Source of the DNA: Ectobius pallidus
Lineage: Eukaryota; Arthropoda; Insecta; Blattodea; Ectobiidae
Assembly: GCA_964059195.1 (NCBI GenBank)
Contig: CAXKWD010000007.1
Location: 62,558,705-62,622,704, forward strand
DNA length: 64,000 nt
Direction: 5' to 3'
Part shown: in pieces, positions 32,696 to 59,997 of the stretch
How the letters are laid out: each line of letters begins with the position of its first letter
Position numbering within the stretch: the first letter of the stretch is position 1
Made by a program: the position numbers and the translations under genes
Notes under the pieces: model-generated
Seen by the model: the letters and a program-made list of their open reading frames with translations, nothing else
Databases searched by the model: none
What the model was told of the DNA's origin: nothing

Positions 32696-32701
32696 GACAT
32701 G

Positions 32702-33177
32702 AGTAGTTATAGGGGAGATATAATCCAAAATGGCCGCCAACCGACGCCGCCCCCGACGCCTGAGTTGTGCCCTTTGTACCGGCGACGCCATGACGTCATG
32801 GATATCATATGAAAGCGCGCGTTATGCCCTTTCGTCCTATGGTGTTCCGACGTCTCCGACGCCGCCCCCCGATGCCCTAGTTGTGCCCTTTTGGCAAATG
32901 ACGTCATGGGTATGGTTTGGACGCTATTATACACGTTTCGAAACAGGAAGAGAGGCCTTTTCATCCTGTGCTAACCCCGTCTCCTCCAGACGCCCCGTTT
33001 AAAAGTTAGGACCTTATGCCATCCGACGCCTCCCCCCGACGCCCACTTAGGTCCTTTGCTCCATGACGTCATGGGAATTTTTCAAACAAAGGGATACGCT
33101 CTTATGCGTTATGGTATTCCCTGGTTCATACCTACGGCCGCCCCCCACCCATACTTAGGTCCTTTGCTCTATGACGT
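32702..33177 (+). repeat. Maverick left terminal inverted repeat
   Basis: About 476 bp, roughly 97% identical by eye to the right TIR, with the outermost 35 bp most diverged. It is GC-rich against an AT-rich background. It contains repeated gacgcc-type blocks, ttgtgccctttt-type blocks and four copies of the palindrome tgacgtca (32791, 32899, 33064, 33172). Confidence 0.96.
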
Positions 33178-33179
33178 CA

Positions 33180-33513
33180 TGGGGTTAGAATTGAAACATG
33201 TCACAGCATGCACCAACGTGACGCTATTATAGCTAGATAGTGTAATAGTGACATACGTACAATATTGCGCAAGGGCACATGATAGTTATGAAAAGATAAA
33301 ATAGGTTTATACTTACATAACCAATTCTTATTCCTTTCAGCATCCTTTCTTCTTCCAGATGAACACTCTTACTATTACTATCGACTAAGTGAAATGACTT
33401 TGTAAGGAATAGGAATTGGTTAAGGTTATAGTTTCATTTCAGAACGTCACAACCTTATCCCATAACATAAGGTTGTCACGCTCCTATGAAATAAAGTGTA
33501 TATACAAATGGCT
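33180..33513. promoter_or_regulatory. Left subterminal region with two inverted repeats
   Basis: An 18-nt inverted repeat (33319-33336 with 33404-33421, 17 of 18) and a perfect 10-bp stem with 8-nt loop (33449-33476) lie between the TIR and the last gene. They may be transcript-end or replication structures. On the minus strand an AATAAA overlaps the end of the terminal ORF (33536-33541). Confidence 0.5.
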
Positions 33514-34323
33514 TCAGAGTAATAGAGCTGGATGATTTATTTCATCGCTAACCATGTCTAATAAAGACAGAATTTCACAATTTGCAGGAACACTTTGTTT
33601 GTTGTTTATATAGTTAAACACTTCGCTTTGCATTAGTACAAACTTATTCATAATGTCATTTATTATGATAGAATTCATAACGAGGTAAGTAATGTCATCA
33701 TTACGTAAAACAATACGAGCACTATCGTATTGCATCACACATTCTTTCAAGTCTTTACGTGTCTGTAATTTGAAAGAGTCTTCTTTAAACAGATAAGGTT
33801 TAGAATAACACATATTTTCACACATTTTAGGTAAATGTAACAAGAACGAAGAGAGGAGGTAGGGCGACAAAATAACACAAGCACCTTTAGAAGTTCCAAT
33901 CTCCGCACATCCAGTGTAATTCACAATGGAGTAGAATCCAAAACTGATGTATCGGTCCTTTCTGTTGTTGAGGAAGTAGGTTCTGCGGGCTAGCACTGTA
34001 GGAGCAACTCTTGGGAGTGTTGCCGACACAGCTTCCTTCACAACCTTGTCGATCATCATCTTCTTCTGTTTCTTTACAGATCCTGATGACGAAACCTGAA
34101 ACACATAAAACAATACCCGTAAGAAATCTAATTTTATACAGGGCCTGATGATGAAACCTGAAAACAAAACAATCAAATAAACAAAGACACAATACAATAC
34201 AAGCATATGAGTAATGAATATACATACCTTTTTACATTTGCTGGTTTTGCTCTTGGTAGTAGTAGTAGTCTCTGATGATGAAGACATCACGATAGAACTG
34301 GGAGGACCTCTCGTTCCAGACAC
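33514..34323 (-). CDS. Maverick terminal ORF, function unknown, probably spliced
   Basis: The ATG-started frame is open for 269 codons, but an intron with clean signals (34096-34227, 132 nt, gtatgt...ttcag) lies inside it in phase. The intended product is therefore probably 225 residues, and the hydrophobic stretch near residues 33-76 is intron. The N-terminus is Ser/Thr-rich. The C-terminal part has a 'YISFGFYSIVNY' segment followed by 'KGACVILSPYLL', which loosely recalls PC4-type single-strand DNA-binding modules; that is speculation. Last gene of the minus-strand cluster, beside the left TIR. Confidence 0.65.
   Translation of the reverse strand: MSGTRGPPSSIVMSSSSETTTTTKSKTSKCKKVCIFITHMLVLYCVFVYLIVLFSGFIIRPCIKLDFLRVLFYVFQVSSSGSVKKQKKMMIDKVVKEAVSATLPRVAPTVLARRTYFLNNRKDRYISFGFYSIVNYTGCAEIGTSKGACVILSPYLLSSFLLHLPKMCENMCYSKPYLFKEDSFKLQTRKDLKECVMQYDSARIVLRNDDITYLVMNSIIINDIMNKFVLMQSEVFNYINNKQSVPANCEILSLLDMVSDEINHPALLL
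34096..34227 (-). other. In-phase intron with duplicated acceptor
   Basis: Donor aaaaag/gtatgt at 34227, acceptor gtgtttcag at 34096. A second, nearly identical acceptor region (gttttcag, ending 34158) lies 62 nt upstream because of a local duplication. Using it would bring in a stop after seven codons. Confidence 0.7.
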
Positions 34324-34377
34324 TGCAACGAAACTGAGCTAGTCCGATGAAATCGAGCTGCTTTATATCTTTTCGTT

Positions 34378-34460
34378 CTGAAATCAGAAAGTAAAGGTTT
34401 TAACTTAAGCACAACCTACTTTTCTAAGCTAACAATAAATCCATGTAGATAAATACTTAC
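34378..34460 (-). other. Intron at the end of the protease gene
   Basis: 83 nt with donor gtaagt at 34460 and acceptor ctgatttcag at 34378. Splicing joins t to aa, creating a stop codon right at the junction. It also supplies a leader exon for the next ORF, whose ATG is 54 nt past the acceptor. Confidence 0.65.
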
Positions 34461-34947
34461 AATGCACATGTCCTGGAAAACATCTCTGACCTCCACCCTT
34501 CCTCGTTCCACAGAGAGTTCCAAGGAATTTGTGGAAGATGCGGACGACCTCTATGTCTGGAGACGTAGTAAACATGCTTACAAACTCCTGCATCGTCCTT
34601 CCATTATTCATGAAGTATGTGAACAAACAGGCATAATGTCCACATACTGCTGTTGTCGGTCCCTGGAGTCTTTGAGTGTTGTACAGCCATTGTATAGAGT
34701 TTTGTTTTATAAATTTTGTTATCCCGGGAATGATGGGTGGTAGACCAAAAGAATCAAAGTAATAGGCAAAATTTTGATTTTTGAAAAGCACGGCAACCCA
34801 ATGAGAACCAGGTGAAGAATGAGGATCAAAGTTAATGACATAAATCTTAGGTTTATGCGTTACAACAGATGGTAACATATCGCTAGGGTAAACCCCACCG
34901 AATGTTTCTACGTGACGTAAAGCATAGTTTATTTGGTTACTATTCAT
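34429..34947 (-). CDS. Adenain-like cysteine protease (Maverick PRO)
   Basis: 172 codons unspliced, 162 if the 3' intron is removed. The adenain-type catalytic set is visible: His49 in GSHWVAV, Asp65 in YYFDSFG, Gln95 in NTQRLQGP and Cys102 in TAVCGHYACLF. Family role: maturation cleavage of capsid-associated proteins. It starts 4 nt after the stop of the major capsid gene. The last ten residues of the unspliced form read like intron sequence. Confidence 0.93.
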   Translation of the reverse strand: MNSNQINYALRHVETFGGVYPSDMLPSVVTHKPKIYVINFDPHSSPGSHWVAVLFKNQNFAYYFDSFGLPPIIPGITKFIKQNSIQWLYNTQRLQGPTTAVCGHYACLFTYFMNNGRTMQEFVSMFTTSPDIEVVRIFHKFLGTLCGTRKGGGQRCFPGHVHCKYLSTWIYC

Positions 34948-34951
34948 TATT

Positions 34952-36274
34952 CTAAAAATCTGTAATCACTCTTCTATCTTTAGTGATCTCGATAGAGTTA
35001 TCGTATTCGGAGTAGAGGATACAAGTGATGGCTTGTTCTAAAGCCTTATCGAACTTTGCTTCTATTCGAATGTTCCCACTACAGGGCAAACTTCTATGAC
35101 CATGCGATGCCGAAACATCAGGCGTAAGATCATACATCAGTGTGAAATACCCATTTATATACATGTCGTGAGTGATTAGCATCCCGCTATTGCTATGATG
35201 GATCCCCGAACCTTTAAAAAGTGTATCGTAAGCTAGAGTAGTAGTCTTCTCATGATCTGTGGAAATGTGTAATCCTTCTGATGGAATCTGTTGTCCATTA
35301 ACGTACAAAGCAAAAGAACTCAAAGCAAAATGTCGAAACTCGTAGGGATTGGACTCCACTGTGCCGGAGAAAGAAGAATTTTTCACCATGGAGAAGAGAA
35401 GTCTTTTAGGTAGAGTACCAATGTATGCGTTATCTATAGAAATGGAGCTTGCTCCTGAACTAAACGTAAATGTTTTCAAATCCACTCTTGTGACAGGGTA
35501 GTGAGCATTATGACCTTTCTCTAGAGTTTTGACGTGTGCTAGTAGAATGCTGGGCGAAGCTTTAATTTTCCTCACGTACAGACCTGCATCGAGAAATTTA
35601 AAGAAGACTTTTGAATTGTCGTTTTCACCCAAGAGATAAAACTCTCTCTTTGCTTTCGTAAGTCGTATATGCATGTTTACTCCTGGCAGTAAAAGTTTAG
35701 ACAGATTGAAAATATCACCGTGTAGTTTACCTATCATTACCAATACTTTAGAATTCTTAGACTTGTTGTATCTTTCGACCCAACCGTCGTTTTTAACATT
35801 TGCTCCTAACGTTCCGTTTAATTCGGCGAGTTCTTTAGGTTCTGTCAAACCTTCGATAGCTTTATCGGCATACCAAAAACCGTTTGTCAGATGAGTTTTA
35901 GAAGCATCCTCACCGTATGCAAACAATGTTTCTAGGTAAGACCTGTAATTGTACAAGTCCTCCGAAGGGGTGATTGATGTCCCGTTCAAGGAAACGCTAA
36001 GATGACTGAAAAGTGAATGAAGCAAGTTGTTTACTCCTGTAACCTTATCCCCTTCAGCTATATCTGCCCCGTCGCTTTTAACGAATTTTCCCTCCACCAT
36101 AAGTTGTACATTTAAATCTGTATAATGTTCGCTGTCTGCAGCAACCACGAATTCGAGAACGCTCTGTTCCACCGGAGTAATGGCTTTGCATAATGTAGTA
36201 ACATTTCCCACCACCGATGTTTGAATAGGGCTCCTCTCGAAAAGGTCGAACTCTGACTTTGTCACGGCAAACAT
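34952..36274 (-). CDS. Maverick major capsid protein (double jelly-roll)
   Basis: 440 codons from an ATG. Segments such as 'LFSHLSVSLNGTSITPS', 'YNYRSYLETLFAYG' and 'FSGTVESNPYEFRHF' match the pattern of the Polinton capsid family, annotated in many animals as an F54H12.2-like protein. Double jelly-roll fold is known for the family and not visible directly. It lies between the small basic protein and the protease, the usual morphogenesis block. Confidence 0.9.
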   Translation of the reverse strand: MFAVTKSEFDLFERSPIQTSVVGNVTTLCKAITPVEQSVLEFVVAADSEHYTDLNVQLMVEGKFVKSDGADIAEGDKVTGVNNLLHSLFSHLSVSLNGTSITPSEDLYNYRSYLETLFAYGEDASKTHLTNGFWYADKAIEGLTEPKELAELNGTLGANVKNDGWVERYNKSKNSKVLVMIGKLHGDIFNLSKLLLPGVNMHIRLTKAKREFYLLGENDNSKVFFKFLDAGLYVRKIKASPSILLAHVKTLEKGHNAHYPVTRVDLKTFTFSSGASSISIDNAYIGTLPKRLLFSMVKNSSFSGTVESNPYEFRHFALSSFALYVNGQQIPSEGLHISTDHEKTTTLAYDTLFKGSGIHHSNSGMLITHDMYINGYFTLMYDLTPDVSASHGHRSLPCSGNIRIEAKFDKALEQAITCILYSEYDNSIEITKDRRVITDF

Positions 36275-36288
36275 CTTTACACGACTGA

Positions 36289-36666
36289 CTACTTTCTCCT
36301 CTTTACATCGCTAAATATATCTCGCATCTTAGGAGACGCCCTTTTTCTCTTTCTACCCCTACCCTTCATTTTTTTCACGAGTTTCTGAGTTGATTCGTTT
36401 ACTCTATTAGCAATAATATCTTTTACCTTATCACCTTCCTTTCTACTTGCTATATCGGTTAAAATATTTGCTCCTGCCGAAAGAGTTTCACGACCTACTG
36501 CTTTAGCACCCGAAAAGAGAATTGGTTTTATCATTCTAAATAATCCTCCCAAGAAACTACCTATTCCACTACCGTGTTGAACATAGGGGCTGCCGCTGTA
36601 GAAAGGACCAACATTGCCTAGACGCCCTCCCGACTGATTCACGTAGTATGCTGTAAGGTGGTCCAT
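36289..36666 (-). CDS. Small basic amphipathic virion-like protein
   Basis: 125 codons. Gly-rich N-terminus; a likely amphipathic helix near residues 33-55 ('SFLGGLFRMIKPILFSGAKA'); then a strongly basic tract near 98-110 (KKMKGRGRKRKRA) and a KRRK end. Mavericks commonly place such a protein beside the capsid genes, and it recalls adenovirus minor virion/core proteins in layout; homology is inferred, not shown. 14 nt upstream of the major capsid ATG. Confidence 0.75.
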   Translation of the reverse strand: MDHLTAYYVNQSGGRLGNVGPFYSGSPYVQHGSGIGSFLGGLFRMIKPILFSGAKAVGRETLSAGANILTDIASRKEGDKVKDIIANRVNESTQKLVKKMKGRGRKRKRASPKMRDIFSDVKRRK

Positions 36667-36672
36667 CGCAAA

Positions 36673-37179
36673 CTAATTCATAACACCATGCCTTCTCTTT
36701 TTAAAATGTAAAACGAGCATCGTAGGTTTAGTGCTATCGGTTATGTTAGCTAGTTCTCCTAGTTTTGTTGTCATTTCTATACCTATCACCTGAAATTCGG
36801 AAGATTCGACAGGAACATAATAAACTTCAGGAAAGACATGAGTTGCTGTATTTAAAGGAAACTGAATAATTCTAAGACATTTAACGTACGCATCTCCTAC
36901 AAGTTGCGGTTTTATTATATTACAGTATATAAAAACAAGTTCTTTCCTATTTAGATTTGTTTTCACAGATTTCGATTCCAATGTTTCATATGGTGTTGAA
37001 GCTGTCGTTTCCGATACATTCCCTTGAGAGTAACTAATTTCGCACAAGCCCACATCCCAATGATTCCTCTCCAGCTTTATGCTCTGTGCCAACTGCACCT
37101 GGAAACTAGCAAGGGTGTTACTAGGAAATGATTTGTACGATGCATCGCTCAGGAGAGTAACGTAAAATTCTTCTCCCAT
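36673..37179 (-). CDS. Maverick minor capsid (penton-like) protein
   Basis: 168 codons. It starts 'EEFYVTLLSDASYKSFPSNT' followed by 'HWDVGLCEISYS', the recognisable N-terminus of the Polinton minor capsid family (single jelly-roll expected). Its ATG overlaps the integrase stop as TAATG. On the short side for the family. Confidence 0.85.
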   Translation of the reverse strand: MGEEFYVTLLSDASYKSFPSNTLASFQVQLAQSIKLERNHWDVGLCEISYSQGNVSETTASTPYETLESKSVKTNLNRKELVFIYCNIIKPQLVGDAYVKCLRIIQFPLNTATHVFPEVYYVPVESSEFQVIGIEMTTKLGELANITDSTKPTMLVLHFKKRRHGVMN

Positions 37180-38243
37180 TACGCTAAATCCTTAGCTTTA
37201 ACCCAGGAATCAAACTCAGGACCGTAACCTCTCCAGCGAACGAGATGTTCGGTACTACCCCTTACTTTACGACTGCGTAGAATTTTATCTATCTTATAAA
37301 CAGTGTCTTTCCCAATAGTTACTGGTGTGAGCTCATAACTGTAAAACTGTCCGAAAATAGGACTGCCCTTGAGATCTTCTAGTTCGTATACGGGTTGAGG
37401 AGAATGTTTAATGACCTTGACAATTCTGAATACTTCGGTAGAATAGTTTTGCTCGAAACCTTTAGCGAATTTCATTTTCTCTCTACCTATTCTTACCGTT
37501 TGCCCTACCGAAAACTTTACAGGTCTCTGTTTCACACGACTCTGTTTCCTTGTCATACGTCGCCATATTTTCAAAACATCTTGATCGGTAACCATACTTG
37601 GGGCCATTCCTGTTGTATTGTGTACGCTATCGTTATAACCCTTCACAAACTTATCCAACACGTCGAGATACTTGTAACTGTTCTTGAAAGTAAAATATTT
37701 GTACATTTTAGTTTTTAGGGTCCTATTAAACCTTTCCACGACGGAACATTTAACATCGGGATTCCTACACACTTGAAACTCGATATTCTCTTTCCTTAAC
37801 AAGTCTTGAAAAGATTTGTTTAGAAATTCTTTACCCCTATCGGTTCTTACAGCGACAGGATTCCTATCGGACTTCTCCAACACCTGTTTAAATCCCTCTG
37901 TCACATCCTTACCTCTTTTAGATTTTAAAGGTACAACCCATACGTATTTGGAAAACACATCGATAACAACAAGTAAATATCTTGCGTTGTCATTATGTTT
38001 CGCAATGCTTTGTACATCGACTAGATCAAGTTCAAACACGTCGTAAAGGTTATTTACAGAATACGGATTCCTAGGAAACTTTCTCCTGATTGGTTTATGT
38101 AAGGAGTAAACATCCTGCTCAACTAACCATTCCTCGATATTTTTATCTGTAATGCTAGAAGCTTGTGAAAGTTTACTAACAGTGGAAAATCCCGTTGCTG
38201 CTTCGGGATCGTAATACAACTTGTGTAATGTTTCCTTCATCAT
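37179..38243 (-). CDS. Retroviral-type integrase with chromodomain (Maverick INT)
   Basis: 354 codons. Catalytic triad Asp73 (FELDLVDV), Asp135 (RTDRGKEF) and Glu170 (SVVERFNR); the 35-residue Asp-Glu spacing is the standard D,D35E. The C-terminal 40 residues ('YKIDKILRSRKVRG...HLVRWRGY') form a chromodomain, known to direct integration to chromatin marks in other elements. It catalyses strand transfer of the linear element and produces the 6-bp TSD. The ATG overlaps the upstream stop as ATGA. Confidence 0.97.
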   Translation of the reverse strand: MMKETLHKLYYDPEAATGFSTVSKLSQASSITDKNIEEWLVEQDVYSLHKPIRRKFPRNPYSVNNLYDVFELDLVDVQSIAKHNDNARYLLVVIDVFSKYVWVVPLKSKRGKDVTEGFKQVLEKSDRNPVAVRTDRGKEFLNKSFQDLLRKENIEFQVCRNPDVKCSVVERFNRTLKTKMYKYFTFKNSYKYLDVLDKFVKGYNDSVHNTTGMAPSMVTDQDVLKIWRRMTRKQSRVKQRPVKFSVGQTVRIGREKMKFAKGFEQNYSTEVFRIVKVIKHSPQPVYELEDLKGSPIFGQFYSYELTPVTIGKDTVYKIDKILRSRKVRGSTEHLVRWRGYGPEFDSWVKAKDLA

Positions 38244-38878
38244 CTCCGTTGTTTATAGGTACTCCACCTAAGCTCTCTCGTTGGAAACAATTTTGCAATG
38301 ACTTGTTTGTATTTAACTGTTCTAGCGGTTTTAATATCGCTCTTATGTCCTTCGGTCCTAGTTAAAATGTCTTTGTACGTGTCGAGGTCTTCCTGCGTAA
38401 CAAGATTCATATCCATCTTCTTCCTAGTAAGCAACTCCCATAAACCTGCATTAGCATCGTATTTTATACCGTTAATGATCAAACTATTGTTTAACAATTG
38501 AATTTTAAAATTACCTATCATGTACTCTCCCGTCTCTTTCTTTTTATAGATTCCAAACTGTGTGTCTACAAGTTTTGGCGATGTTACATAAGCCGATAAA
38601 TATTTACCTGCTACATCACCTATAACGTTACGTTTAGCTTCGTCCTCGGAGATAGGTTTTTTCTCGGGTGATAAATCTCTAACTCTTTTCCTCGATTCAG
38701 CTACTTCCTGTTCGAGTATTCTGTTCTGTTTTCTCTTGAATATAGGATCCTCACTCTCGCGTATTTTAGCCAACTCTATGTACGGATCCGTAACATCAAC
38801 TGCCGGGTTTGAACCTTCGACACAACGTTTTAAACGCTTGTACTCTTTAGCACTAACCAGAAACATTTTCTGTAACAT
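38240..38878 (-). CDS. Conserved Maverick protein, function unknown (212 aa)
   Basis: The N-terminus is charged and likely helical (residues 1-80). The C-terminal half contains 'FGIYKKKETGEYMIGNFKIQ' and 'AGLWELLTRK', a pattern I recognise as recurrent in animal Polintons without assigned function. It starts within the stop of the 105-aa gene (TAATG) and ends within the start of integrase. A virion or genome-binding role is possible. Confidence 0.7.
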   Translation of the reverse strand: MLQKMFLVSAKEYKRLKRCVEGSNPAVDVTDPYIELAKIRESEDPIFKRKQNRILEQEVAESRKRVRDLSPEKKPISEDEAKRNVIGDVAGKYLSAYVTSPKLVDTQFGIYKKKETGEYMIGNFKIQLLNNSLIINGIKYDANAGLWELLTRKKMDMNLVTQEDLDTYKDILTRTEGHKSDIKTARTVKYKQVIAKLFPTRELRWSTYKQRR

Positions 38879-39195
38879 TATGTTAAAGATCCCAAGACGG
38901 ATAACACGGAGGACAAGAGAGGAATTAAAAATTCTCCTTTCTGTACCAAAGTTTTCTTTTTCTCAGACAAGGATACGTTCCTATCTAGAAGATGTCTTAA
39001 GGAATGTTTATGTTTAAACAGCTTACGTTTAGAACACGAAGATAATTTACACTGACCGTTCAAAACATTAAGAACACAGTCTATAATAGCAAGTATCAGG
39101 TTTTTGTTTGCACTTTTTAGAATAACGTTTCGTACCCTGGGAGTTGCCTTTTTAAGAACTTGTAACATATGGTAATTGGATTTTATCCTTTTCAT
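38878..39195 (-). CDS. Conserved small Maverick protein (105 aa)
   Basis: A helical basic protein with 'LLDRNVSLSEKKKTLVQKG' followed by a hydrophobic tail (residues 89-105). The same layout, ending in a Leu/Gly-rich tail, is common in animal Polintons, where its role is unknown. Overlaps the end of the ATPase gene by 44 nt. Confidence 0.7.
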   Translation of the reverse strand: MKRIKSNYHMLQVLKKATPRVRNVILKSANKNLILAIIDCVLNVLNGQCKLSSCSKRKLFKHKHSLRHLLDRNVSLSEKKKTLVQKGEFLIPLLSSVLSVLGSLT

Positions 39196-39829
39196 CCTTT
39201 ACAGGGACGTAAACCTTTGTAACCTCCGAGGGAAATATTTTAGTTCTAAATCTAAGTAAATCGTTTGTTCTTTGACAAAAGTCTATTAGTAAATAACCGT
39301 GAGGTTTTCTTGTTGCGTCTTGGAAAGCTCTGTAGAAAGACCTCCAATCTTCAGGATACACTTGTCTTGCTAGAAAAGTAATTTGATTTTTATCTCTCAG
39401 GTTTCTAAACAAAACCATATACTTTGTGTTCAAAGAGATGTCTCTGCTGTGAGCAGACTGGTGAAACAGGTTTTGTGTTATGAGAATAACTGAAATGTTT
39501 CTATGATGGCAACCTTTTGTAAATATAGAACTCACTTCTGTCGAATAAGCTTTGTCCAGTAAGTCGTCTAGAATAACGAGTCTGGGTTTAGTACATTGTT
39601 CTTGTTTAAAGTCAGGAAGACCTTCGTGGTATGTCACGGTAGTATTGAATTTTGTCTGGGGAGGGACAGCGTTACTTTCACTAAAGCACCACAGAATACT
39701 TTCGTATTTGCTCACGTTACACAAATGGTGTAAATTATTAATAAGTTTTACACAGAAAGTCGTCTTTCCAGAAAATGACGGACCTGATACAATCAAAGAA
39801 AAGGGATGGTCAAATTTTATTACAACCAT
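39152..39829 (-). CDS. FtsK/HerA-type genome packaging ATPase (Maverick ATP)
   Basis: 225 codons. Walker A GPSFSGKT (residues 16-23), Walker B LVILDD (84-89), and a sensor-like 'ILITQN' (115-120). This is the A32-like ATPase expected to pump element DNA into capsids. Length is typical. Overlaps both neighbours (20 nt and 44 nt). Confidence 0.93.
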   Translation of the reverse strand: MVVIKFDHPFSLIVSGPSFSGKTTFCVKLINNLHHLCNVSKYESILWCFSESNAVPPQTKFNTTVTYHEGLPDFKQEQCTKPRLVILDDLLDKAYSTEVSSIFTKGCHHRNISVILITQNLFHQSAHSRDISLNTKYMVLFRNLRDKNQITFLARQVYPEDWRSFYRAFQDATRKPHGYLLIDFCQRTNDLLRFRTKIFPSEVTKVYVPVKDEKDKIQLPYVTSS

Positions 39830-40100
39830 AACAATGTTTAATCATAGGTGGGGGTCCATCCAAGCAATCGTAAGGAGAATTAGGGTAATGTTTAAAGCAT
39901 CTAAGACACTTTTTTAAAAGATCGTTACGTTGCACACTTTCAGGTAATTTATGATACACTAAATATATGCTCTCGGCTCCGCATGTCGTTAAAAGTTCAG
40001 GGGACAACACCTCCAACTCTTCACCTGTGTGATGAATAAGCGTTCTAAAATCCAATAATTTTCTAACTGACGCACACTCCAGAGACGACGACGAGTCCAT
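39810..40100 (-). CDS. Small Cys-containing Maverick protein (96 aa), unknown
   Basis: Lies 26 nt after the PolB stop and overlaps the ATPase start by 20 nt. C-terminal residues show two Cys pairs (CLRC near residue 65 and CYGC near the end) that could bind a metal. No family recognised. Tight packing between two core genes supports it being real. Confidence 0.6.
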   Translation of the reverse strand: MDSSSSLECASVRKLLDFRTLIHHTGEELEVLSPELLTTCGAESIYLVYHKLPESVQRNDLLKKCLRCFKHYPNSPYDCLDGPPPMIKHCYGCNKI

Positions 40101-40126
40101 ACTGAGATGGTGCTCTCGTCTCGTTT

Positions 40127-43100
40127 CTATTTATACCCGAACGGGAGGGAATCGAACCCTCCGCTAACTCTGCGTCTTTTTCGAAAACAGAGTCGGTATA
40201 TCTTATTCTCGCCTTCAGACACGATCTGTGGGCCAGGCTTTCTCTTAATTTTCCTCTCTGTCCTCACAGAGATAATTGCCGCGGGATCACCATTTAAAAC
40301 CATGGTTTTAATGGCGTCGAAGTTGACATCCTGCAACGTTTTATAATTAAGAGTAATACCTCTGACTTTACACACAGAGGTATTTGCGGTGTTGTTGGAA
40401 GGAACGGTAACCCTAAAACCATAGTTCTTGGGGCCCCCGCTTGCAAACTCCGAAATGTACGCGTCCTCCCCGTAGTCTGTGAGTTCGCTGGTCATGTCGC
40501 CTAAATAGTCACCTAAAGGCACAGTGTACCTTTTAGCGTCGTCGGGCGTCTGTGTATAAATCACACTGTCCGTGTCACAGTAGATAGCTCGACGATCTAG
40601 CTTGTCCAGGTAGCCGTAGAGATTCATTCTACCTCCCGATGTCACATAAGCACCGTGAACGACACTAGTATGAGGAAGAGAGTCCTGTTCCTCCTCTATA
40701 GGGATCCAATTAATCCACACGACTTCGTCATTTGCAAAAAGTAGTCTCTGAATTTCAATTCCGGGTGTCGTGAGGAACCTATACAGCTCTTTAGGCTCTT
40801 TAATAAGCTTTGTTTTACCCAGGTTAGACCTCTGGACGAGCTTTCCCCAGAAGGAATTCAAACAAAGCTTACTAATGGTCCTTTTTCCAGCGTTCTTCAC
40901 GATTTGTTTGGGGTCTAACTTAACACCTTCGTGTTCGTAAAACAAATCGATATATTCCTGTTTCTGGGCCTCTGTTTTCACCCAACCAGGGTATCCGCTG
41001 GATTCTGTCTTAATCTGGAGGAAAAGGTTGATGTAATCCACGAATAACCCTCCCTCACGAGTTTCACGCGAGTATTGCGTGACATCGTATTCGAGAAATT
41101 CGTGGATTGCCAACACCCTATAGCCCTTATTTACAGCTAGTCTCACTTCATCAACTACCCATGTACCAGTGAGCACTCTCTCTTCCTCTTTCGCATGTTT
41201 GCAGCTACCTTGTTCGACAGTCATAACACAGGTGCGGCAAAGGGGAAACAAGAGCCTACCATTCCACCTGAAAGGTAAAACGGGATGGTAGAGCCCTTGC
41301 GGTGGTAGGACAGTGCATTTAATGAGGCCTTCTTTCTTCATCATTGAATCTATATCTGTACACTGGTCACTAACGTGAACAGTGGGGTGACCGATAGGAA
41401 ACTTGTTGTACTTACAGACGGATGGGTATAGGGACATTATATCGCTGTATAGGATTTTCTCTTCTTTCGTCTCATCCGCCTTACGATAAAGCCGCATGGC
41501 TTCTGTACGTCCTCCGTAGACAGAGTCCCTAAGGACCAACGGGACATCACAGACCAAGGGGTCGTCTCTCAGTGCGGGGAACTGTTCGAGAATAACATCG
41601 AACTTGCATTCCCACATCACATTGACAACATAACCCTTTGATCGGATCTTGTCCAGTCGGCCCATGGTGTTCTCGTACCTCTCGGCAAGGGATTCTGAAG
41701 AATCCATCATAGGTACATCTCGGTTTGGTTGACAGAGACAGCCATGATAATAGCAGCCGAGAAATTCGAAAACCTCTCCTGTTTCATCACAGAAACCGTC
41801 CACCTTCCATTGGGGAAGTTCGGGAAGCCGTACCTCGCGTCCGTTACCTGCATGACGTATAAATACATTCCTCTCCTTGGCTTCATGGATAAGCCACATC
41901 AACGATTTTTTAGAATGCCTGTCTGCCTTTCTATAGCCACAGGAGGGAGCAATGCCAATGGTCTGAGGTTTAAGGAATAGCTGTCTAAATATTCTGTTAC
42001 AGGCCGATGCAATAGTGATAGTCTCTAGGAAAATATCTATATTGGCAATTTGTTTGAACGGATTTTTAAAGAGAGTGCAGGCTTCTCTCAGTACAGTAAC
42101 ATCGGCCTGGCAATACCTCTCCAGTTCTACACGGGTATTGAACGGCAGATCTTTAACGGTCTCGAACCATGTCTTGAAAGCTTCTCTATCTTTCACAGAC
42201 ATGGTGTCCGGCCCGTAAAGATCTTGGTTCGGGTGATGTGGGAGAATACTGTTGAGGTTCTGTGCCGTATTCCACAAATGTGGAAAGTAGCCCTTAACAG
42301 CGTCTTTTAGGTCAAAGGTCTGAGGGAAACTACGCAGAGGCAGCGGAATGAAGTTCAGACTGTCTAGAAAAGTTAGATGGTGCATCTTCATGCAAAGGAT
42401 CTTGCATCCGGTCATAATCAAGTCGGGAGTCCACTGTTGCCTAATAGCGTAGTCGAGAATGAATTGGAGATCGAACGCTCGAGCATTGTGAGCAATAACA
42501 ATGATCCTATCGAACGCTCTATCCATTCTCAGATAGTCCATGAATCCACAGACGGGATCTTCCCAGAAAGAATGACTGCGTTGCCCGCATCTGGCGCACT
42601 CTTCGTCTTGCGATGTCTCGCAAAGAGAACAAAACTGCTGTGCACAAATCAGATTGGGGACGTGAAGAAAGGTATTGTCTTTGATAAGGGTATTCTGTGT
42701 TGTTTCTATATCGAATATCACATACAATACCTTGTTTGAACGCATAGTTTCTTTCAGCGGTGCCATGTAACATTCATGTCCTGTCTCTGCTTGATTACTT
42801 TTACACACGGTACAATAAATTTTGAAACATTCATGTTTCCGCTGAAATGTCGTAAACTTACCACAGTTTAGACAGTTCTGCATAGCCATGCATACAGTGC
42901 GCCCTTGAACCTTGGTACGCTTATGATTCTCGAAACATCCCGGTCCGCGAAATTCTCTACGACAATCGGCACACTTCACCGCCTTCTTGCTAGGATCGCA
43001 AGGAGGCACCGTTCGGCAACAGAAGCAGACGTAATGACAGGAGTGTTGCGCACCGTTCCTGAAGCCTTTAAGACAGCCTGGACAAACGAATCGTTTAGCC

Positions 43101-44194
43101 ATTGCAGAGGTCAAGTTTGTTATGGTATGGTAATGTAAGGTGTCTGGGTCGTATAGTAAATACAGTATTTGTTTACCTACATTACCACCGTCGTAAATAA
43201 TGGAGTCAAGATTAAATCCGCTATACACAACTAGTCTATATGAATCCTTAAGATAGGCTTGAAGCTTCTCCAGCTCAGGGATACCTCCACCTCGCGAGAG
43301 ATCGACACCTGAGTTTCTGATTAACTTATCCACTTCTGCTTTGAGTTTTTTGCTTGTCATATTATGATCTATATATGATTTATAAATTTTACGTTCACCA
43401 AGTCTAGCAATAGCGATTACTATAGCAAATGCTAAACAGTTCACCACTGCTTGTACGAAGACTACGCTTCTCTTCAAATGGGCAAGTACGCCAACCGTAC
43501 GCCCCTTCGTGGGTATACCGCTAGCTCGACCGTTTCCGTTGGGCATGTGAACAATGTCCACAACCAGACGCAAGCGGTCGGTGGCATTGAAACGAGCGTT
43601 CGATTGGCATACTTTGCTTACGACGCCTGAAATCACATCTACACTGATCTGATCTTTACGCCTAAAGGAGATACCAATCGGCTTATCGACCTCGTTTTCC
43701 TCATTGAAAATCGAGATCCCTACCATGTCATGGTCTCTCGTATCGACTAGGGCATGATCTATTGCCTGTTTAAGGGAACGTTCAAAAGGGTTTGGTCCTG
43801 CATTCGCACCTGGTTCTTTGAGCTGTATCACTAGCTGCAGACCAACGGAATTAAATCGCTTGTAGTCTTTACGACTACTTTCAAGGACTGAAAACAAAGT
43901 AGGGACGTTTCCCGTAGCGTTTTCGTCAGTATTACGTGACGTCGACGCTACAGGTTCCTGTTCCTCCTCGTTTTCATTCAATACATCTAATTCATTGGCT
44001 GAAGCTAGTTCATCTTCATCGGATTCATCTACGTCAGAATCGGACAACGTGACAGTTTCTATTCCGTTATCCGATTCCGAACTTGACACTGTGTAAATCT
44101 CAGGTTCGGAATCGTCTATCGTAATAGTGTCCATCTCGTTTTCTGATTCCGACGAGATAGTATATACAGGGGCAGACATTATCGGTATTATCAA
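40127..44194 (-). CDS. Protein-primed family B DNA polymerase (Maverick POLB)
   Basis: 1355 codons. Acidic Ser-rich N-terminus (1-80); Cys/His-rich zinc-binding region (about 370-480); 3'-5' exonuclease motifs FDIET (about 494), AHNARAFDLQF (about 565) and YCQADVTVL (about 691); palm motif A 'DIMSLYPS' (about 917), motif B 'KLCLNSFWGK' (about 1108), motif C YCDTDS (about 1204). Sequence between A and B is long, as in protein-primed polymerases. A FLGCYYHGC motif near 810 recalls a nuclease-like insertion. It replicates the linear element from its TIRs. Met1 or Met6 could start. Confidence 0.97.
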   Translation of the reverse strand: MIIPIMSAPVYTISSESENEMDTITIDDSEPEIYTVSSSESDNGIETVTLSDSDVDESDEDELASANELDVLNENEEEQEPVASTSRNTDENATGNVPTLFSVLESSRKDYKRFNSVGLQLVIQLKEPGANAGPNPFERSLKQAIDHALVDTRDHDMVGISIFNEENEVDKPIGISFRRKDQISVDVISGVVSKVCQSNARFNATDRLRLVVDIVHMPNGNGRASGIPTKGRTVGVLAHLKRSVVFVQAVVNCLAFAIVIAIARLGERKIYKSYIDHNMTSKKLKAEVDKLIRNSGVDLSRGGGIPELEKLQAYLKDSYRLVVYSGFNLDSIIYDGGNVGKQILYLLYDPDTLHYHTITNLTSAMAKRFVCPGCLKGFRNGAQHSCHYVCFCCRTVPPCDPSKKAVKCADCRREFRGPGCFENHKRTKVQGRTVCMAMQNCLNCGKFTTFQRKHECFKIYCTVCKSNQAETGHECYMAPLKETMRSNKVLYVIFDIETTQNTLIKDNTFLHVPNLICAQQFCSLCETSQDEECARCGQRSHSFWEDPVCGFMDYLRMDRAFDRIIVIAHNARAFDLQFILDYAIRQQWTPDLIMTGCKILCMKMHHLTFLDSLNFIPLPLRSFPQTFDLKDAVKGYFPHLWNTAQNLNSILPHHPNQDLYGPDTMSVKDREAFKTWFETVKDLPFNTRVELERYCQADVTVLREACTLFKNPFKQIANIDIFLETITIASACNRIFRQLFLKPQTIGIAPSCGYRKADRHSKKSLMWLIHEAKERNVFIRHAGNGREVRLPELPQWKVDGFCDETGEVFEFLGCYYHGCLCQPNRDVPMMDSSESLAERYENTMGRLDKIRSKGYVVNVMWECKFDVILEQFPALRDDPLVCDVPLVLRDSVYGGRTEAMRLYRKADETKEEKILYSDIMSLYPSVCKYNKFPIGHPTVHVSDQCTDIDSMMKKEGLIKCTVLPPQGLYHPVLPFRWNGRLLFPLCRTCVMTVEQGSCKHAKEEERVLTGTWVVDEVRLAVNKGYRVLAIHEFLEYDVTQYSRETREGGLFVDYINLFLQIKTESSGYPGWVKTEAQKQEYIDLFYEHEGVKLDPKQIVKNAGKRTISKLCLNSFWGKLVQRSNLGKTKLIKEPKELYRFLTTPGIEIQRLLFANDEVVWINWIPIEEEQDSLPHTSVVHGAYVTSGGRMNLYGYLDKLDRRAIYCDTDSVIYTQTPDDAKRYTVPLGDYLGDMTSELTDYGEDAYISEFASGGPKNYGFRVTVPSNNTANTSVCKVRGITLNYKTLQDVNFDAIKTMVLNGDPAAIISVRTERKIKRKPGPQIVSEGENKIYRLCFRKRRRVSGGFDSLPFGYK

Positions 44195-44198
44195 AACT

Positions 44199-44306
44199 CT
44201 ACAAACACAGATGAAGAATGAATCTGGAAACAGTAGAAATATTCATATATGTAACAGTATAATTGACATATAAATGTATGGTAATTAAAAGCACACTAAC
44301 ACTCAC
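44199..44306 (-). other. Intron in the PolB leader
   Basis: Donor ataag/gtgagt at 44306; acceptors ctgtttccag (44224) or tgtttgtag (44199) lie just upstream of the PolB ATG. A short leader exon would be spliced to the coding exon. Confidence 0.6.
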
Positions 44307-44331
44307 CTTATATGTAGAAAGCGTTGTAGTA

Positions 44332-44367
44332 CACTGAGAAGTGAAAAGTAAGATGTGTCTATTTATA
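44332..44367 (-). promoter_or_regulatory. PolB core promoter: TATA box plus initiator
   Basis: On the minus strand TATAAAT (44367-44361) is followed by TCAGTG (44337-44332). The initiator A is 32 nt downstream of the first T of the TATA box, the canonical spacing. TCAGTG is the arthropod initiator form. Confidence 0.8.
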
Positions 44368-44407
44368 CTAGCTTTCGAAATGTTATTTTTAGAAAGTATG
44401 AAGCTTT

Positions 44408-45343
44408 GGAATTTTCCTGTGTCGTAATGTATTTGCTATGTTTGCGTTATCTGTCTACTTACTTACTACATCATCGAAAAGTTATTTAGAAAGCATGTAT
44501 TTACGGGGTCTTATCTTAACTTAGGAATGTGCAGAAACATGTATCTATACAGATAGCTCAAGCACTTACACTAATGATACTCTCTCGCAAGAAATAGATT
44601 GTATCACATAGGAATTTTCCTGTGTCGTAATGTATTTGTTATGTTTGCGTTATCTGTCTACTTACTTACTACATCATCGAAAAGTTATTTAGAAAGCATG
44701 TATTTACGGATTCTTATCTTAACTTAGGAATGTGTGGAAACATGTATCTATACAGATAACTCAACCACTTACACTAATGACACTCTCTCGCAAGAAATAG
44801 ATTGTATCACATAGGAATTTTCCTGTGTCGTAATGTATTTGTTATGTTTGCGTTATCTGTCTACTTACTTACTACATCATCGAAAAGTTATTTAGAAAGC
44901 ATGTATTTACGGATTCTTATCTTAACTTAGGAATGTGTGGAAACATGTATCTATACAGATAACTCAACCACTTACACTAATGACACTCTCTCGCAAGAAA
45001 TAGATTGTATCACATAGGAATTTTCCTGTGTCGTAATGTATTTGTTATGTTTGCGTTATCTGTCTACTTACTTACTACATAATCGAAAAGTTATTTAGAA
45101 AGCATGTATTTACGGATTCTTATCTTAACTTAGGAATGTGTGGAAACATGTATCTATACAGATAACTCAACCACTTACACTAATGACACTCTCTCGCAAG
45201 AAATAGATTGTATCACATAGGAATTTTCCTGTGTCGTAATGTATTTGTTATGTTTGCGTTATCTGTCTACTTACTTACTACATCATTGAAAAGTTATTTA
45301 GAAAGCATGTATTTACGGATTCTTATCTTAACTTAGGAATGTG
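44408..45343. repeat. 203-bp tandem repeat, 4.6 copies
   Basis: Units begin at 44408, 44611, 44814, 45017 and 45220 with ggaattttcctgtgtcgtaa. The spacing is exactly 203 bp. Copies 2-4 are nearly identical, copy 1 more diverged, copy 5 partial. They lie between the divergent PolB and plus-strand promoters. Confidence 0.97.
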
Positions 45344-45391
45344 CTCTCAAGGTCTCTGTTACTACGTCATACTGTTGCTCGGAGAGTTTTG

Positions 45392-45454
45392 TATAAAACA
45401 CATGTATTTACAGGGTTATGTTAAGTGTGTAAGCGGATCTACAGTTGTTCAGTC
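45392..45454 (+). promoter_or_regulatory. Probable promoter of the right-hand transcription unit
   Basis: TATAAAA at 45392-45398. A TCAGTC initiator-like word is at 45449, too far for strict TATA spacing, so the start site is uncertain (about 45422 or 45451). Confidence 0.5.
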
Positions 45455-45488
45455 ATCTTGTTCTTCTCCTACTTTAAAAACTTATAAG

Positions 45489-45600
45489 GTAAGACTACAT
45501 CTACACTATTTTATGATATAATCTTTACAGCTTTGTGTGATACTTTTATTATTAATATAAATAAGTAGTTAATCAGACTTCGTTCTCGTTTTTTTTACAG
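45489..45600 (+). other. Leader intron of the right-hand gene
   Basis: Donor ttataag/gtaaga at 45489 and acceptor ttttttacag ending at 45600, immediately before the ATG at 45601. Mirrors the leader intron of PolB. Confidence 0.75.
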
Positions 45601-45924
45601 ATGGTCTCTCTAGTTGCGAAATTTAACTCAGCATCTTCTTCTTTACCAAGGTGCGTAGGAATGTTAGAGCTCGTAGAGAACGTGCCTTACAATATTGTTT
45701 ATGCGGCCATAAAGGAAACACGATATGGCCGTTGCGTGTTATTACATATTCGAAAGAGCGAAAGTATAGATCTGTTATCGGTATTCTTACCCAAAAAGTA
45801 TACCGATGTGTTTAGCGAAACAGAGATCTGCGGAATAAACAGTGGTGAAACCAGGGTTGATCTGATTTATAAAGGAACTTTCCCCAATTCTAAGGCATAT
45901 AATCTATCCTTGGTTAATGCCTAG
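45601..45924 (+). CDS. Right-hand Maverick gene, isoform A (107 aa)
   Basis: Starts at the ATG exactly at the leader-intron acceptor. Contains 'NIVYAAIKETRYGRCVLL' and 'SVFLPKKYTDVF', a pattern I recall from short arthropod proteins linked to mobile elements, possibly an OB-type nucleic-acid-binding fold; not verified. This form needs retention of the splice site at 45651. No AATAAA follows, only an ATTAAA variant near 46050. Confidence 0.65.
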   Translation: MVSLVAKFNSASSSLPRCVGMLELVENVPYNIVYAAIKETRYGRCVLLHIRKSESIDLLSVFLPKKYTDVFSETEICGINSGETRVDLIYKGTFPNSKAYNLSLVNA

Positions 45925-46165
45925 GTACATGTTTCTCCCTCTAATGATACTGTTGCTATGAATGTTTATTACTTCGCAAGTGTTTGTGTTGAGGTACTGA
46001 ACATATGGATATTGTAATGTTTAATTCATTCCCATATACACTACCTATATTAAATAATTCTTCTTCTGGGGTAATGAATGTAATGAAGGTATTATCAAAA
46101 GAGGAATGTAATGTTTCCTAAACCATATAACTATACGTAATTAATTATTGTTTTGCTTTCATCAG
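45651..46165 (+). other. Alternative intron linking the shared first exon to isoform B
   Basis: Donor ccaag/gtgcgt at 45651, acceptor tttcatcag ending 46165. Splicing is in phase and keeps the first 16 codons plus one junction codon. Confidence 0.6.
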
Positions 46166-46664
46166 GGACTGTCGCATAGTTGATTTGCAAGGCTATTATG
46201 AACAGAGTACAAAAAAAAACTTCATACTGAAAGAATATGCTTCAGTTGATCTTACTACTACTACTGCCTTTCGTGTGCTTCACCTGTTATTTGAATCACC
46301 AAAAGACTGTATTGTGGACGAAGGTACTAAGCATTTTCTTGAACATTTTTATCATGGACTGCAGTACGAGTTTGGTGTTGAGAAGTACGATCAGTTGTCT
46401 TGTATAATACAAAATGATTTAGGAAACTGTATGTATGTATTTGTAAAAGGCATTGAAAAAAGACGTTTTTTACAAACTATAGTTTCAAAAGATGTTCAAA
46501 TCATGGATCTTACGAACTATGAATGTCCAAGCTTAAGATGTCTTCCTAAAACTAACATAACTTGTGAATATCATAGTTTCCCCTATGGAATGTGTTCGTA
46601 TAGGAATGTAATAGCTTTACAAACATGGCTGATGAATGACAACATGTGTAGCTTTTTTGTATAA
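46166..46664 (+). CDS. Right-hand Maverick gene, isoform B body
   Basis: The frame is open from the acceptor at 46166 to 46664 and lacks a good internal start (46185 is TTG), so it needs the upstream exon; the spliced product would be 182 residues. 'VDLQGYYEQ' near the start, 'VFVKGIEKRRFL' and a Cys-containing 'YECPSLRCLP...CEYH' segment match a widespread insect family of unknown function, which may have a nuclease-like fold (weak). An AATAAA lies at 46684-46689, 20 nt past the stop. Confidence 0.7.
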
Positions 46665-46683
46665 ATACATAAAGGACAAATGT

Positions 46684-46689
46684 AATAAA
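46684..46689 (+). terminator. Poly(A) signal of the right-hand gene
   Basis: AATAAA 20 nt downstream of the isoform B stop codon. Confidence 0.65.
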
Positions 46690-46739
46690 ATGTTGTTGTT
46701 ACGTTTTGAAGTATTAGAAAACACTTGTGGTAAACATAA

Positions 46740-47800
46740 TAATCGTTAAGTATCTATATATCTATATAACTAAGTCACATTGTAATAATATTAATAAAAG
46801 TCAGATTCACTTTGTATCGTATTATTATTTAAATAATGTATTCCTTTCCTCTCACACAATCCTGCTCCTATGTCAGGATTTAATTTATTATATAGACCTA
46901 GTAAAAAGTGTTCCTTATTACAGGGCATGGAGGCACTGAAGGTGCCAAGAGGTTGAGGCTCCCAGATTTGAGACATTCGGCACAAAAAAAGGTGTTAATG
47001 TTGTCATCAATACGCATCGAAACTAGCACAATGAACCAATATTAGCATTTGTTTTTTTTTGTTTAAATAAAATGTCACTATAAAATCCTCGGAGCACACA
47101 AGAATAGTTTACGGTGTAATTTAGAAAGTGTATCAATTGAACGTAATGTGGTTGCTATTATAGACTTCAACTGTATAATAAATATGTTTGCATCCATCAA
47201 AACTAAGAAGGCACATTTTAGATTTTGTTTTGTTTTGTTGAGATACCGTAACTTCTTTAAATCAAACTATCCATATAATTAGGTGGAGGCTTTCTATGAC
47301 ATTAAATAGGATATATGCATGCACCCTACAAACCGTTCCATTTTCACCAGGATGATTGGAATAGGATTTTAAAGTTAGTTGGGTAAGAATGCAAAGTGGA
47401 GAATATCTCATGTCATAGAAACCTTGCACCTACTTATAATACATTTATAATCATATGGTATGCATATTATATGAACTATAAAAAAAAGGTGAGATTCAAT
47501 TCGACTCTGTTTACTTAATACAGGTATTCTTTGTAAAGGCCTAAGTGAAACGCACACAATGAACATATATTAGTTTTTATTTTTACTTACAACTTTTCAT
47601 AGCTCTGAACCACAAACATTTTGTACTAAAACTGTTATTATAAAATCCTTGAGTCAACTAATAAAGAGGGGCGTTCACTATAAAAGCCCAGCGCAATCAT
47701 AAAAAAAAACAATAAACTGTCACTTAATTATTAGTAAATAAACGAAAATATGATTACTTACCACAGGGTCAGATGTATGACTTCGCTCATACACTAAGCG
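46740..47800. other. Maverick right non-coding region
   Basis: No gene recognised. Contains a loose direct repeat ('acacaatgaac' to 'ataaaatcct', 47023-47100 and 47552-47650) and an imperfect 21-nt inverted pair around ctttctatgaca (47281-47301 with 47411-47431). Confidence 0.5.
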
Positions 47801-47802
47801 AT

Positions 47803-47916
47803 CACTCTTAACTTAGGACAGTACGGAAACATGTATTTATACAGAAAGCTCAAACATTTACATTAATGACATCACACCTTTAAAATTCTCTCTTCCCCAA
47901 GAAAAAAAGATTGTAT
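47803..47916 (+). repeat. Diverged partial copy of the 203-bp repeat
   Basis: Shares cttaacttagga, ggaaacatgtat, 'cattaatgaca' and 'agattgtatc' in the same order and orientation as the 44408-45343 units, but about 2.5 kb away and next to the right TIR. Confidence 0.75.
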
Positions 47917-48120
47917 CTCTAAACAAGCCAAGGGATACATTCCAGAGCTACACTTCCGTGTTCCTGTTGTTTCGCAAAAAAAAGATAAGCTGTTGAAAGG
48001 AATTCTTTTCCTCTTAGTCATGATGTTATGTATAGTGCTTGTTACAGTAACTCTATCCACCTGCTAGATTTGGTAATAGGATATGAACGTTTTTCTTAGA
48101 ACGTATTTGCATAATAACCT

Positions 48121-48597
48121 ACGTCATGGAGCAAAGGACCTAAGTATGGGTGGGGGGCGGCCGTAGGTATGAACCAGGGAATACCATAACGCATAAGAGC
48201 GTATCCCTATGTTTGAAAAAATTCCTATGACATCATGGAGCAAACGACCTAAGTGGGCGTCGGGGGGAGGCGTCAGATGGCATAAGGTCCTAACTTTTAA
48301 AAGGGGCGTCTGGAGGAGACGGGGTTAGCACAGGATGAAAAGGCGTCTCTTCCTGTTTCGAAACGTGTATAATAGCGTCCAAACCATACCCATGACGTCA
48401 TTTGCCAAAAGGGCACAACTAGGGCGTCGGGGGGCGGCGTCGGAGACGTCGGAACACCATAGGACGAAAGGGCACAACGCGCGCTTTCATATGATACCCA
48501 TGACGTCATGGCGTCGCCGGTACAAAGGGCACAACTCAGGCGTCGGGGGCGGCGTCGGTTGGCGGCCATTTTGCTTTATAGCTCCCTACTTACTACT
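48121..48597 (-). repeat. Maverick right terminal inverted repeat
   Basis: Inverse of 32702-33177. Two tgacgtca palindromes remain intact (48393, 48501) and two are mutated (near 48121 and 48228). The 90-codon frame it contains (48297-48569) is shared with the left TIR through inverted-repeat identity. Confidence 0.96.
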
Positions 48598-59990: not shown

Positions 59991-59997
59991 TCTAATG

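What the first reader, a model, noticed from the sequence alone, without database searches (positions are those of the whole stretch)
32702..48597. Intact, probably young Maverick/Polinton with virus-type gene set
Exact 6-bp TSD (gacatg), ag...ct ends, TIRs about 97% alike by eye, and uninterrupted PolB, integrase, ATPase, protease, major and minor capsid genes. A complete copy with no stop codons in any core gene is uncommon and could be mobile or produce particles.
Basis: partly seen in the sequence, partly recalled or inferred. Interest (0 to 1): 0.88.

Follow-up and report, generated by a model that had tools for sequence, protein, structure and literature searches.

The report
Polinton family with hypervariable shuffled tips
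The stretch is a complete, virus-like mobile element (a Polinton), one of many close relatives in this animal genome, and the family's extreme ends carry a short block that differs widely between copies, usually matches at both ends of one copy, and looks shuffled while the elements were being copied.

Summary
In detail: 32702-48597 is a Polinton/Maverick with an exact 6-bp duplication, inverted ends and open genes for polymerase, integrase, ATPase, protease and a double-jelly-roll capsid protein. The interpretation needs changing. Such copies are not uncommon here: an end pattern of the family matches 700 times in this 2.1-Gb genome, 135 distinct places carry the integrase and/or capsid gene (capped listings), and 71 of the 76 places listed for both have no stop in either. 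The window copy is not shown to be young: its ends are hybrid, so the difference between its terminal repeats (21 of 479) is no clock.

What is new is the family. Between constant AGTAGT and constant AAAATGGCCGCC lies a block, mostly 19 nt, that differs by 40% between copies (next 19 nt: 2.4%), built from recombined sub-blocks (linkage gone by about 8 bp), yet identical at both ends in 40 of 55 paired copies (shuffled 1.2). The gene half is near linkage equilibrium beyond 200 bp, and shared changes lean against amino-acid change. This fits a virus-like population that recombined before integrating. Strand exchange at protein-primed initiation is inferred; no particle was seen.

The parts
32696..32701 (.). 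Target-site duplication, left (gacatg)
48598..48603 (.). Target-site duplication, right (gacatg)
32702..33180 (+). Left terminal inverted repeat
48118..48597 (-). Right terminal inverted repeat
32702..32707 (+). Constant end AGTAGT (jump-back type repeat)
32708..32726 (+). Hypervariable 19-nt tip block, left type
32727..32738 (+). Constant subterminal AAAATGGCCGCC, left
48573..48591 (-). Hypervariable 19-nt tip block, right type; 7 of 19 differ from the left
33514..34323 (-). ORF-A, function unknown, possibly with an in-frame intron (by eye); one homologue found
34429..34947 (-). Adenain-like cysteine protease
   Evidence: Peptidase_C5 6.2e-07
34952..36274 (-). Major capsid protein, double jelly roll
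36289..36666 (-). Small basic protein between MCP and candidate mCP (PW-like by position)
   Evidence: role inferred
36673..37179 (-). Candidate minor capsid protein
   Evidence: position; 10 homologues; fold not confirmed
37179..38243 (-). Retroviral-type integrase with chromodomain
38240..38878 (-). ORF of unknown function
   Evidence: no match over a cut-off
38878..39195 (-). Small ORF, function unknown
39152..39829 (-). A32-like packaging ATPase
   Evidence: Pox_A32 2.3e-08
39810..40100 (-). Small ORF, function unknown
40127..44194 (-). Family B DNA polymerase (organellar and viral type); exonuclease and polymerase motifs recognised by eye
   Evidence: PF03175 7.9e-42
44408..45343 (.). 203-bp tandem array (4.6 copies) inside the element
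45565..45924 (+). Accessory ORF, perhaps first exon
   Evidence: exon reading inferred
46131..46664 (+). Accessory ORF, perhaps later exon
   Evidence: exon reading inferred

Best explanation
A complete Polinton (an integrating virus of the Eupolintoviridae kind), one sample from a recently active, freely recombining population in this host. Shown: many copies; open integrase and capsid genes in most scored copies; shared changes leaning against amino-acid change; near linkage equilibrium in the gene half; a short hypervariable, block-shuffled tip that matches at both ends of most paired copies. Inferred: copies replicate outside the chromosome by protein-primed, strand-displacement synthesis from the AGTAGT ends. 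When different genomes replicate together, short terminal strands switch template between genomes and between the two ends of one genome, shuffling and then equalising the tips, and ordinary recombination shuffles the body. The integrase then inserts the products, which largely stop exchanging. The window copy integrated while its two tips still came from different parents, and its MCP and INT genes carry tracts from a divergent lineage.
For: 700 matches of the end pattern, reversed-pattern control 0; 516 with a longer flank, control 0. Tip: 30 distinct 19-mers in 33 copy-ends, pairwise difference 0.40 against 0.024 in the next 19 nt. Linkage over 62 distinct 19-mers falls from V2 0.211 at distance 1 to 0.060 at 5-7, 0.039 at 8-11 and 0.034 at 12-18; shuffled 0.032-0.039. 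Paired ends: 40 of 55 identical, 4 with at most 3 differences, 1 the same with extra terminal bases, 10 hybrid; shuffled partners 1.2 identical on average, 8 at most in 10,000 shuffles. Of 14 copies read at both ends with a 6-bp duplication, 11 have identical tips, one differs by one base, window and L003 are hybrid. AGT number varies between the ends of some copies. Body: r2 0.459 within 50 bp, 0.095 at 50-200, 0.054-0.071 beyond (theory for 18 unlinked copies about 0.06), 64-76% of site pairs beyond 50 bp show four combinations. In the 200-bp windows starting at 35380-35980 and 37380-37580 the window copy differs 2-5% from its nearest copy; the windows on either side differ 0-0.5%, others 0-2%. 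Shared changes outside MCP are 42 N to 44 S against 2.9-3.0 to 1 without selection. Adenovirus ends carry a duplicated trinucleotide and initiation in phi29 is unfaithful (PMC4974454, passages).
Against: No particle, free DNA, transcript or new insertion was seen. Strand switching at initiation is an analogy: in phi29 the polymerase leaves the priming protein by nucleotide 10, sooner than this 25-nt tip. Recombination alone does not explain why tip alleles differ by 40% where the flank differs by 2%. The copies used for the body were picked from an MCP-ranked list (20 of 96 rows; 18 used), so MCP dN/dS 0.06 is biased low. INT is less constrained (0.37) than MCP or protease. 7 of 20 fetched left halves have a break in one of five core genes. 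10 of 55 paired ends are hybrid; pairing is by nearness, so some pairs may join ends of different insertions. One copy (L020) has matching tips but no duplication.
Confidence: 0.6

Rival explanations
1. A plain transposon burst: copies amplified in the germ line without particles, and the mosaic pattern comes from gene conversion between chromosomal copies.
For: Dispersed repeats do convert (general knowledge); the 135 listed places lie on 14 contigs; integrase constraint is modest, 0.37.
Against: Conversion in the chromosome would alter the two ends of a copy separately, but 40 of 55 paired copies have identical tips while different copies match in 21 of 3003 comparisons. Capsid and protease genes are constrained among copies, though the MCP value is biased.
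Confidence: 0.17
2. The tip is under diversifying selection: a spacer of nearly fixed length that must differ from resident copies to escape host silencing or interference, with recombination as the source of new combinations.
For: Difference of 0.40 beside 0.024; length 19 in 84 of 99 ends; a kept T[AT]TAA core in 29 of 32 copies; tip similarity hardly follows body similarity (Mantel r 0.125, p 0.065).
Against: No host factor, small RNA or interference was tested; neutral high mutability with a spacing need would look alike.
Confidence: 0.25
3. Ends are equalised by annealing of the whole inverted repeat (panhandle) and mismatch repair, not by tip-limited strand switching.
For: Subterminal repeat types also agree between the ends of 12 of the 13 copies aligned; L003 is the exception.
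Against: The window has different tips but identical columns 26-60; L005 has identical tips, but its inner repeat differs from about column 100 on. Exchange tracts can therefore begin or end inside the repeat.
Confidence: 0.3
4. Assembly or polishing artefact.
For: Read data were not seen; near-identical repeats invite errors.
Against: Matching rare tips some 14 kb apart, 6-bp duplications in 14 read pairs, reversed-pattern control 0.
Confidence: 0.03

Closest known systems
Vertebrate Mavericks (PMC8097293, passages read)
   Same: 6-bp TSD, (AGT)2 as the commonest end motif, TIRs, size about 17 kb, genes for PolB, ATPase, integrase, minor and major capsid, PW and protease; purifying selection on core genes in cyprinid elements; 134 intact elements in 17 species, 96% defective.
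   Different: There two gene modules lie on different strands; here all identified core genes are on one strand. The most intact copies in one genome there was 38, judged on eight genes; here 71 places have INT and MCP both without stops, a weaker test. A hypervariable, shuffled tip is not described in the passages read; the paper does say that information content falls inward from the end motif.
Eupolintoviridae (formerly Adintoviridae), order Amphintovirales
   Same: Gene set of animal polintoviruses (recalled; their description was not read here).
   Different: Assignment to a genus not tested (no tree was built).
Protein-primed replication of adenovirus and phi29 (PMC4974454, passages)
   Same: Short terminal repetition used for jumping or sliding back; linear genomes with repeated ends.
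   Different: A block-shuffled hypervariable region just inside the terminal repetition is not mentioned in the passages read.

Membership tests
Polinton/Maverick | 6-bp target-site duplication | tested here: met
Polinton/Maverick | Terminal inverted repeats with (AGT)2 or (AG)3 ends | tested here: met
Polinton/Maverick | Family B polymerase of the organellar/viral type | tested here: met
   PF03175
Polinton/Maverick | Replication by protein priming | not testable with these tools
   only the end motif hints at it
Polinton/Maverick | Retroviral-type (rve) integrase | tested here: met
Polinton/Maverick | A32-like ATPase | tested here: met
Polinton/Maverick | Adenain-like protease | tested here: met
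Polinton/Maverick | Double-jelly-roll major capsid protein | tested here: met
   (PDB matches include SGIV, PBCV-1, Sputnik and mavirus capsid proteins)
Polinton/Maverick | Penton-type minor capsid protein | tested here: inconclusive
   homologues; model pLDDT 38.3
Vertebrate Maverick architecture | Two core modules on different strands | tested here: not met
   PolB to protease all on the minus strand
Eupolintoviridae (virus) | Virions or free linear genomes | not testable with these tools
   no reads or microscopy
Eupolintoviridae (virus) | Placement in a genus by phylogeny | not tested
   no tree built

The most novel reading that the evidence does not exclude
Polintons possess a terminal diversity system: a tip of nearly fixed length whose sub-blocks are recombined during protein-primed replication and copied to the other end, giving many integrated copies their own identity tag. 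The tag could record which copies replicated together, or serve to evade host or superinfection control.
Probability: 0.22. Interest if true: 0.85.

Novelty: new variant of a known kind. Interest (0 to 1): 0.62.

Why it matters
Mavericks encode capsid genes but, by a 2021 survey, particles had not been observed (PMC8097293, abstract start). Many near-identical copies in one genome give a population sample: selection can be compared between shared and private changes, recombination can be mapped, and the tip is a natural tag that tells whether the two ends were equalised before integration. It also warns that differences between Polinton terminal repeats are not a safe clock.

Tried and rejected
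Tried without result: Rfam and tRNA scans of the window (none); MCP against PDB by sequence (none); MCP and its alignment in viral contigs (no relative confirmed); PHROGs (strong only for PolB); AF2 of the minor capsid candidate (failed); naming the host (nuclear COX1 copies; code 5 reading; I recall it as insect-like, not tested). Considered and rejected: TIR divergence as the age of the window copy (hybrid tips); a broken minor capsid gene (only the last residues differ); chromosomal gene conversion as the main cause. Literature: searches (listings only); passages of PMC8097293, PMC6431247, PMC4974454, PMC12451622. None of what I saw showed a hypervariable or block-shuffled Polinton tip; subscription papers are mostly not held. 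A study of nematode Mavericks that I recall was sought and not found.

Rows dropped before counts: L001 and L015 (rearranged) from the body analyses; one slipped AGT row each; second ends and copies with the same flank; tips of L038, L042 and L051, read, fell out because the pieces were short; L052 and L053 showed no intact end motif; only one end of E5 was recognised; L068 (an end piece fetched by guess) held no end.
Full report
1. The element. The element runs 32702-48597 (15,896 bp) between two copies of gacatg. The inverted arms found by program are 381 and 105 nt at 96%; aligned, the repeats differ by 21 substitutions and one gap in 479 positions. On the minus strand lie, in order of transcription, PolB, a small ORF, ATPase, two unknown ORFs, integrase with chromodomain, the candidate minor capsid protein, a small basic protein, the major capsid protein, the protease and ORF-A. 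Pfam supports PolB, integrase, chromodomain, ATPase and protease. The MCP has no Pfam or PDB sequence match, but 185 relatives in public proteins and a model with mean pLDDT 83.8 whose solved matches are double-jelly-roll capsid proteins, among them those of an iridovirus, PBCV-1, Sputnik and mavirus. The minor capsid protein is supported by position and ten relatives only. Beyond PolB lie a 203-bp tandem array and two plus-strand ORFs that may be exons of one gene.

2. It is not rare here. The window lies in a 2.12-Gb assembly of 410 contigs. The integrase finds 115 scored places (of 6276 candidates, the rest not scored), all matched over at least 353 of 354 residues, at 94-97% besides itself, 11 with one stop (by eye). 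The MCP finds 96 (of 848 candidates), full length at 98-99% besides itself, 2 with a stop. Joined, these are 135 distinct places, 76 with both genes listed; in 5 of the 76 one gene has a stop, leaving 71, window included (frameshifts are not seen in those tables). A pattern of constant end, 15-24 free bases and constant inner sequence matches 700 times in the genome and 0 times read backwards; some matches are slipped double readings of one end, short derivatives or extra ends. Of 20 left halves fetched, 13 show protease, MCP, small basic protein, minor capsid candidate and integrase without stop or frameshift; this set was picked from the MCP listing (20 of 96 rows), so it leans to intact copies. 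For scale, a survey of vertebrates found 134 intact Mavericks in 17 species and at most 38 in one genome, judged on eight genes (PMC8097293, passages).

3. The tips. In the copies read, the end is AGTAGT (sometimes AGT three times), then a free block, then AAAATGGCCGCC or nearly so. In 33 copy-ends (both window ends counted) there are 30 different 19-mers; mean pairwise difference is 0.40, against 0.024 in the next 19 bases. Positions 18 and 20 are T in 33 of 33, and 21 and 22 A in 31 of 33, a kept T[AT]TAA core; outside it the difference is 0.49 (32 copies). In the listing the block was 19 nt in 84 of 99 ends, 20 in 9 and 21 in 6. The blocks are combinatorial: 41 left halves and 20 right halves make the 62 different 19-mers, and two right halves each occur with nine left halves. 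Association between positions is V2 0.211 for neighbours and 0.039 at 8-11 bases, as in shuffled columns.

4. The two ends of one copy agree. Listed ends 5-30 kb apart in opposite orientation gave 55 pairs (the first 100 rows of each, on C1, C2 and the start of C3): 40 identical, 4 with up to three differences, 1 the same with extra terminal bases, 10 hybrid. Shuffled partners gave 1.2 identical on average and 8 at most in 10,000 shuffles; different copies agree in 21 of 3003 comparisons. Fourteen copies were read with flanks and a 6-bp duplication: 11 identical, one with a single difference and one extra base at the duplication (E2), and two hybrid, the window and L003 (some duplications checked by eye). 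For L020 the tips match but no duplication was seen. Right ends were missed in the first pieces for L002, L007, L008 and L020; L002 and L008 appear as an identical pair 25.9 kb apart and as a hybrid; none was found for L007. The window has different tips (7 of 19) but the same bases in columns 26-60 of both ends, whereas L005 has the same tips and differs further in.

5. The body recombines. Over 33.18-38.24 kb, 18 copies (L001 and L015, rearranged, left out) differ by a median of 1.2%. Of 86 sites with the minor base in three or more copies, r2 is 0.459 within 50 bp, 0.095 at 50-200 and 0.054-0.071 beyond, near the value that theory gives for unlinked sites in 18 copies; 35% of pairs within 50 bp and 64-76% beyond show all four combinations. 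The window itself is 1.9-2.6% from each of the 18, concentrated in the 200-bp windows starting at 35380-35980 and 37380-37580, where it differs 2-5% even from the nearest copy. Body and tip similarity are barely related (Mantel r 0.125, p 0.065).

6. Selection. Summed dN/dS among the 18 copies: ORF-A 0.34, protease 0.22, MCP 0.06, small basic protein 0.10, minor capsid candidate 0.20, integrase 0.37. The MCP value is biased low because the copies came from an MCP-ranked list. Without MCP, changes shared by two or more copies are 42 amino-acid-changing to 44 silent, private ones 72 to 47 with one stop; about 2.9-3.0 to 1 is expected without selection. So the replicating lineages were selected, and the private changes, some of them after insertion, less so.

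7. How it works. The ends resemble those of protein-primed genomes: a duplicated trinucleotide, as in adenovirus, allows the initiating product to jump back, and initiation in phi29 is unfaithful and not proofread (PMC4974454, passages). Varying AGT number between the ends of some copies fits this. Block-shuffled tips that are then equal at both ends need an exchange that can be limited to the outermost bases and a step that copies one end to the other, both before integration. I think the most likely step is switching of short terminal strands between genomes and between ends during initiation; panhandle annealing is the main alternative, and both may act. Neither explains alone why the tip alleles are so diverged; raised error at initiation with only spacing and the T[AT]TAA core under constraint, or selection for difference, is needed. 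Shown: the pattern. Inferred: the steps.

8. What is known and what is new. Gene content, duplication length and end motif are ordinary for Polintons. The hypervariable, shuffled, end-matched tip and the near-equilibrium mosaic of copies did not appear in what I saw of the literature (listings 22, 37, 38, 44, 60, 80, 83, 97, 100; passages as named). The survey of vertebrate Mavericks mentions falling information content inward from the end motif, which may be the same thing seen from afar.

9. Limits. PolB, ATPase and the empty site could not be searched in the genome. Absolute dates are not given, because the repeats are not a clock and no rate was tested. No tree was built. The pair and tip counts rest on the listed rows only.

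Noticed in passing
G000:C356:1615269-1622608: Two MCP-bearing left halves lie head to head about 6 kb apart, like the palindromic products of polymerase template switching.
   Followed up: no
G000:C6:29317333-29359970 (L046-L049): Several element ends in 43 kb; three share the same flank and tip, so a host segment carrying an end seems to have been duplicated.
   Followed up: partly
L010; G000:C1:78583556 and 78583612: The terminal unit with the same tip is repeated 91 and 56 bp further on, a duplication of the very end.
   Followed up: no
G000:C1:62359968-62360218 and C1:118171486-118174076: Pairs of opposed ends with the same tip only 0.25 and 2.6 kb apart: likely short deletion derivatives.
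   Followed up: no
Left repeats of L002-L020 and the places: Terminal repeats of many copies hold arrays of about 99-bp units and fall into at least three subterminal types.
   Followed up: partly
G000:C5:44393378-44446399 and other contigs (L035-L037): Many nuclear copies of mitochondrial COX1; six full-length ones have no stop but TGA, so they look like recent transfers (one read under code 5).
   Followed up: partly
window 44408-45343: 203-bp tandem array with 98% matches inside the element, between PolB and the plus-strand ORFs.
   Followed up: no
window 7147-9026, 14212-15282, 58853-60001: ORFs that read like LINE reverse transcriptases (recognised by eye; no family search).
   Followed up: no
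window 24375-24959: ORF that reads like part of a mariner-type transposase (by eye).
   Followed up: no
window 33514-34323 (ORF-A): Protein kept among copies (dN/dS 0.34) with one relative found among 5.8 billion proteins, and a hydrophobic stretch that may be an in-frame intron.
   Followed up: partly
P0126 against window 36673-37179: One relative of the minor capsid candidate is 294 aa, with a long middle part that this family and the other aligned relatives lack.
   Followed up: no
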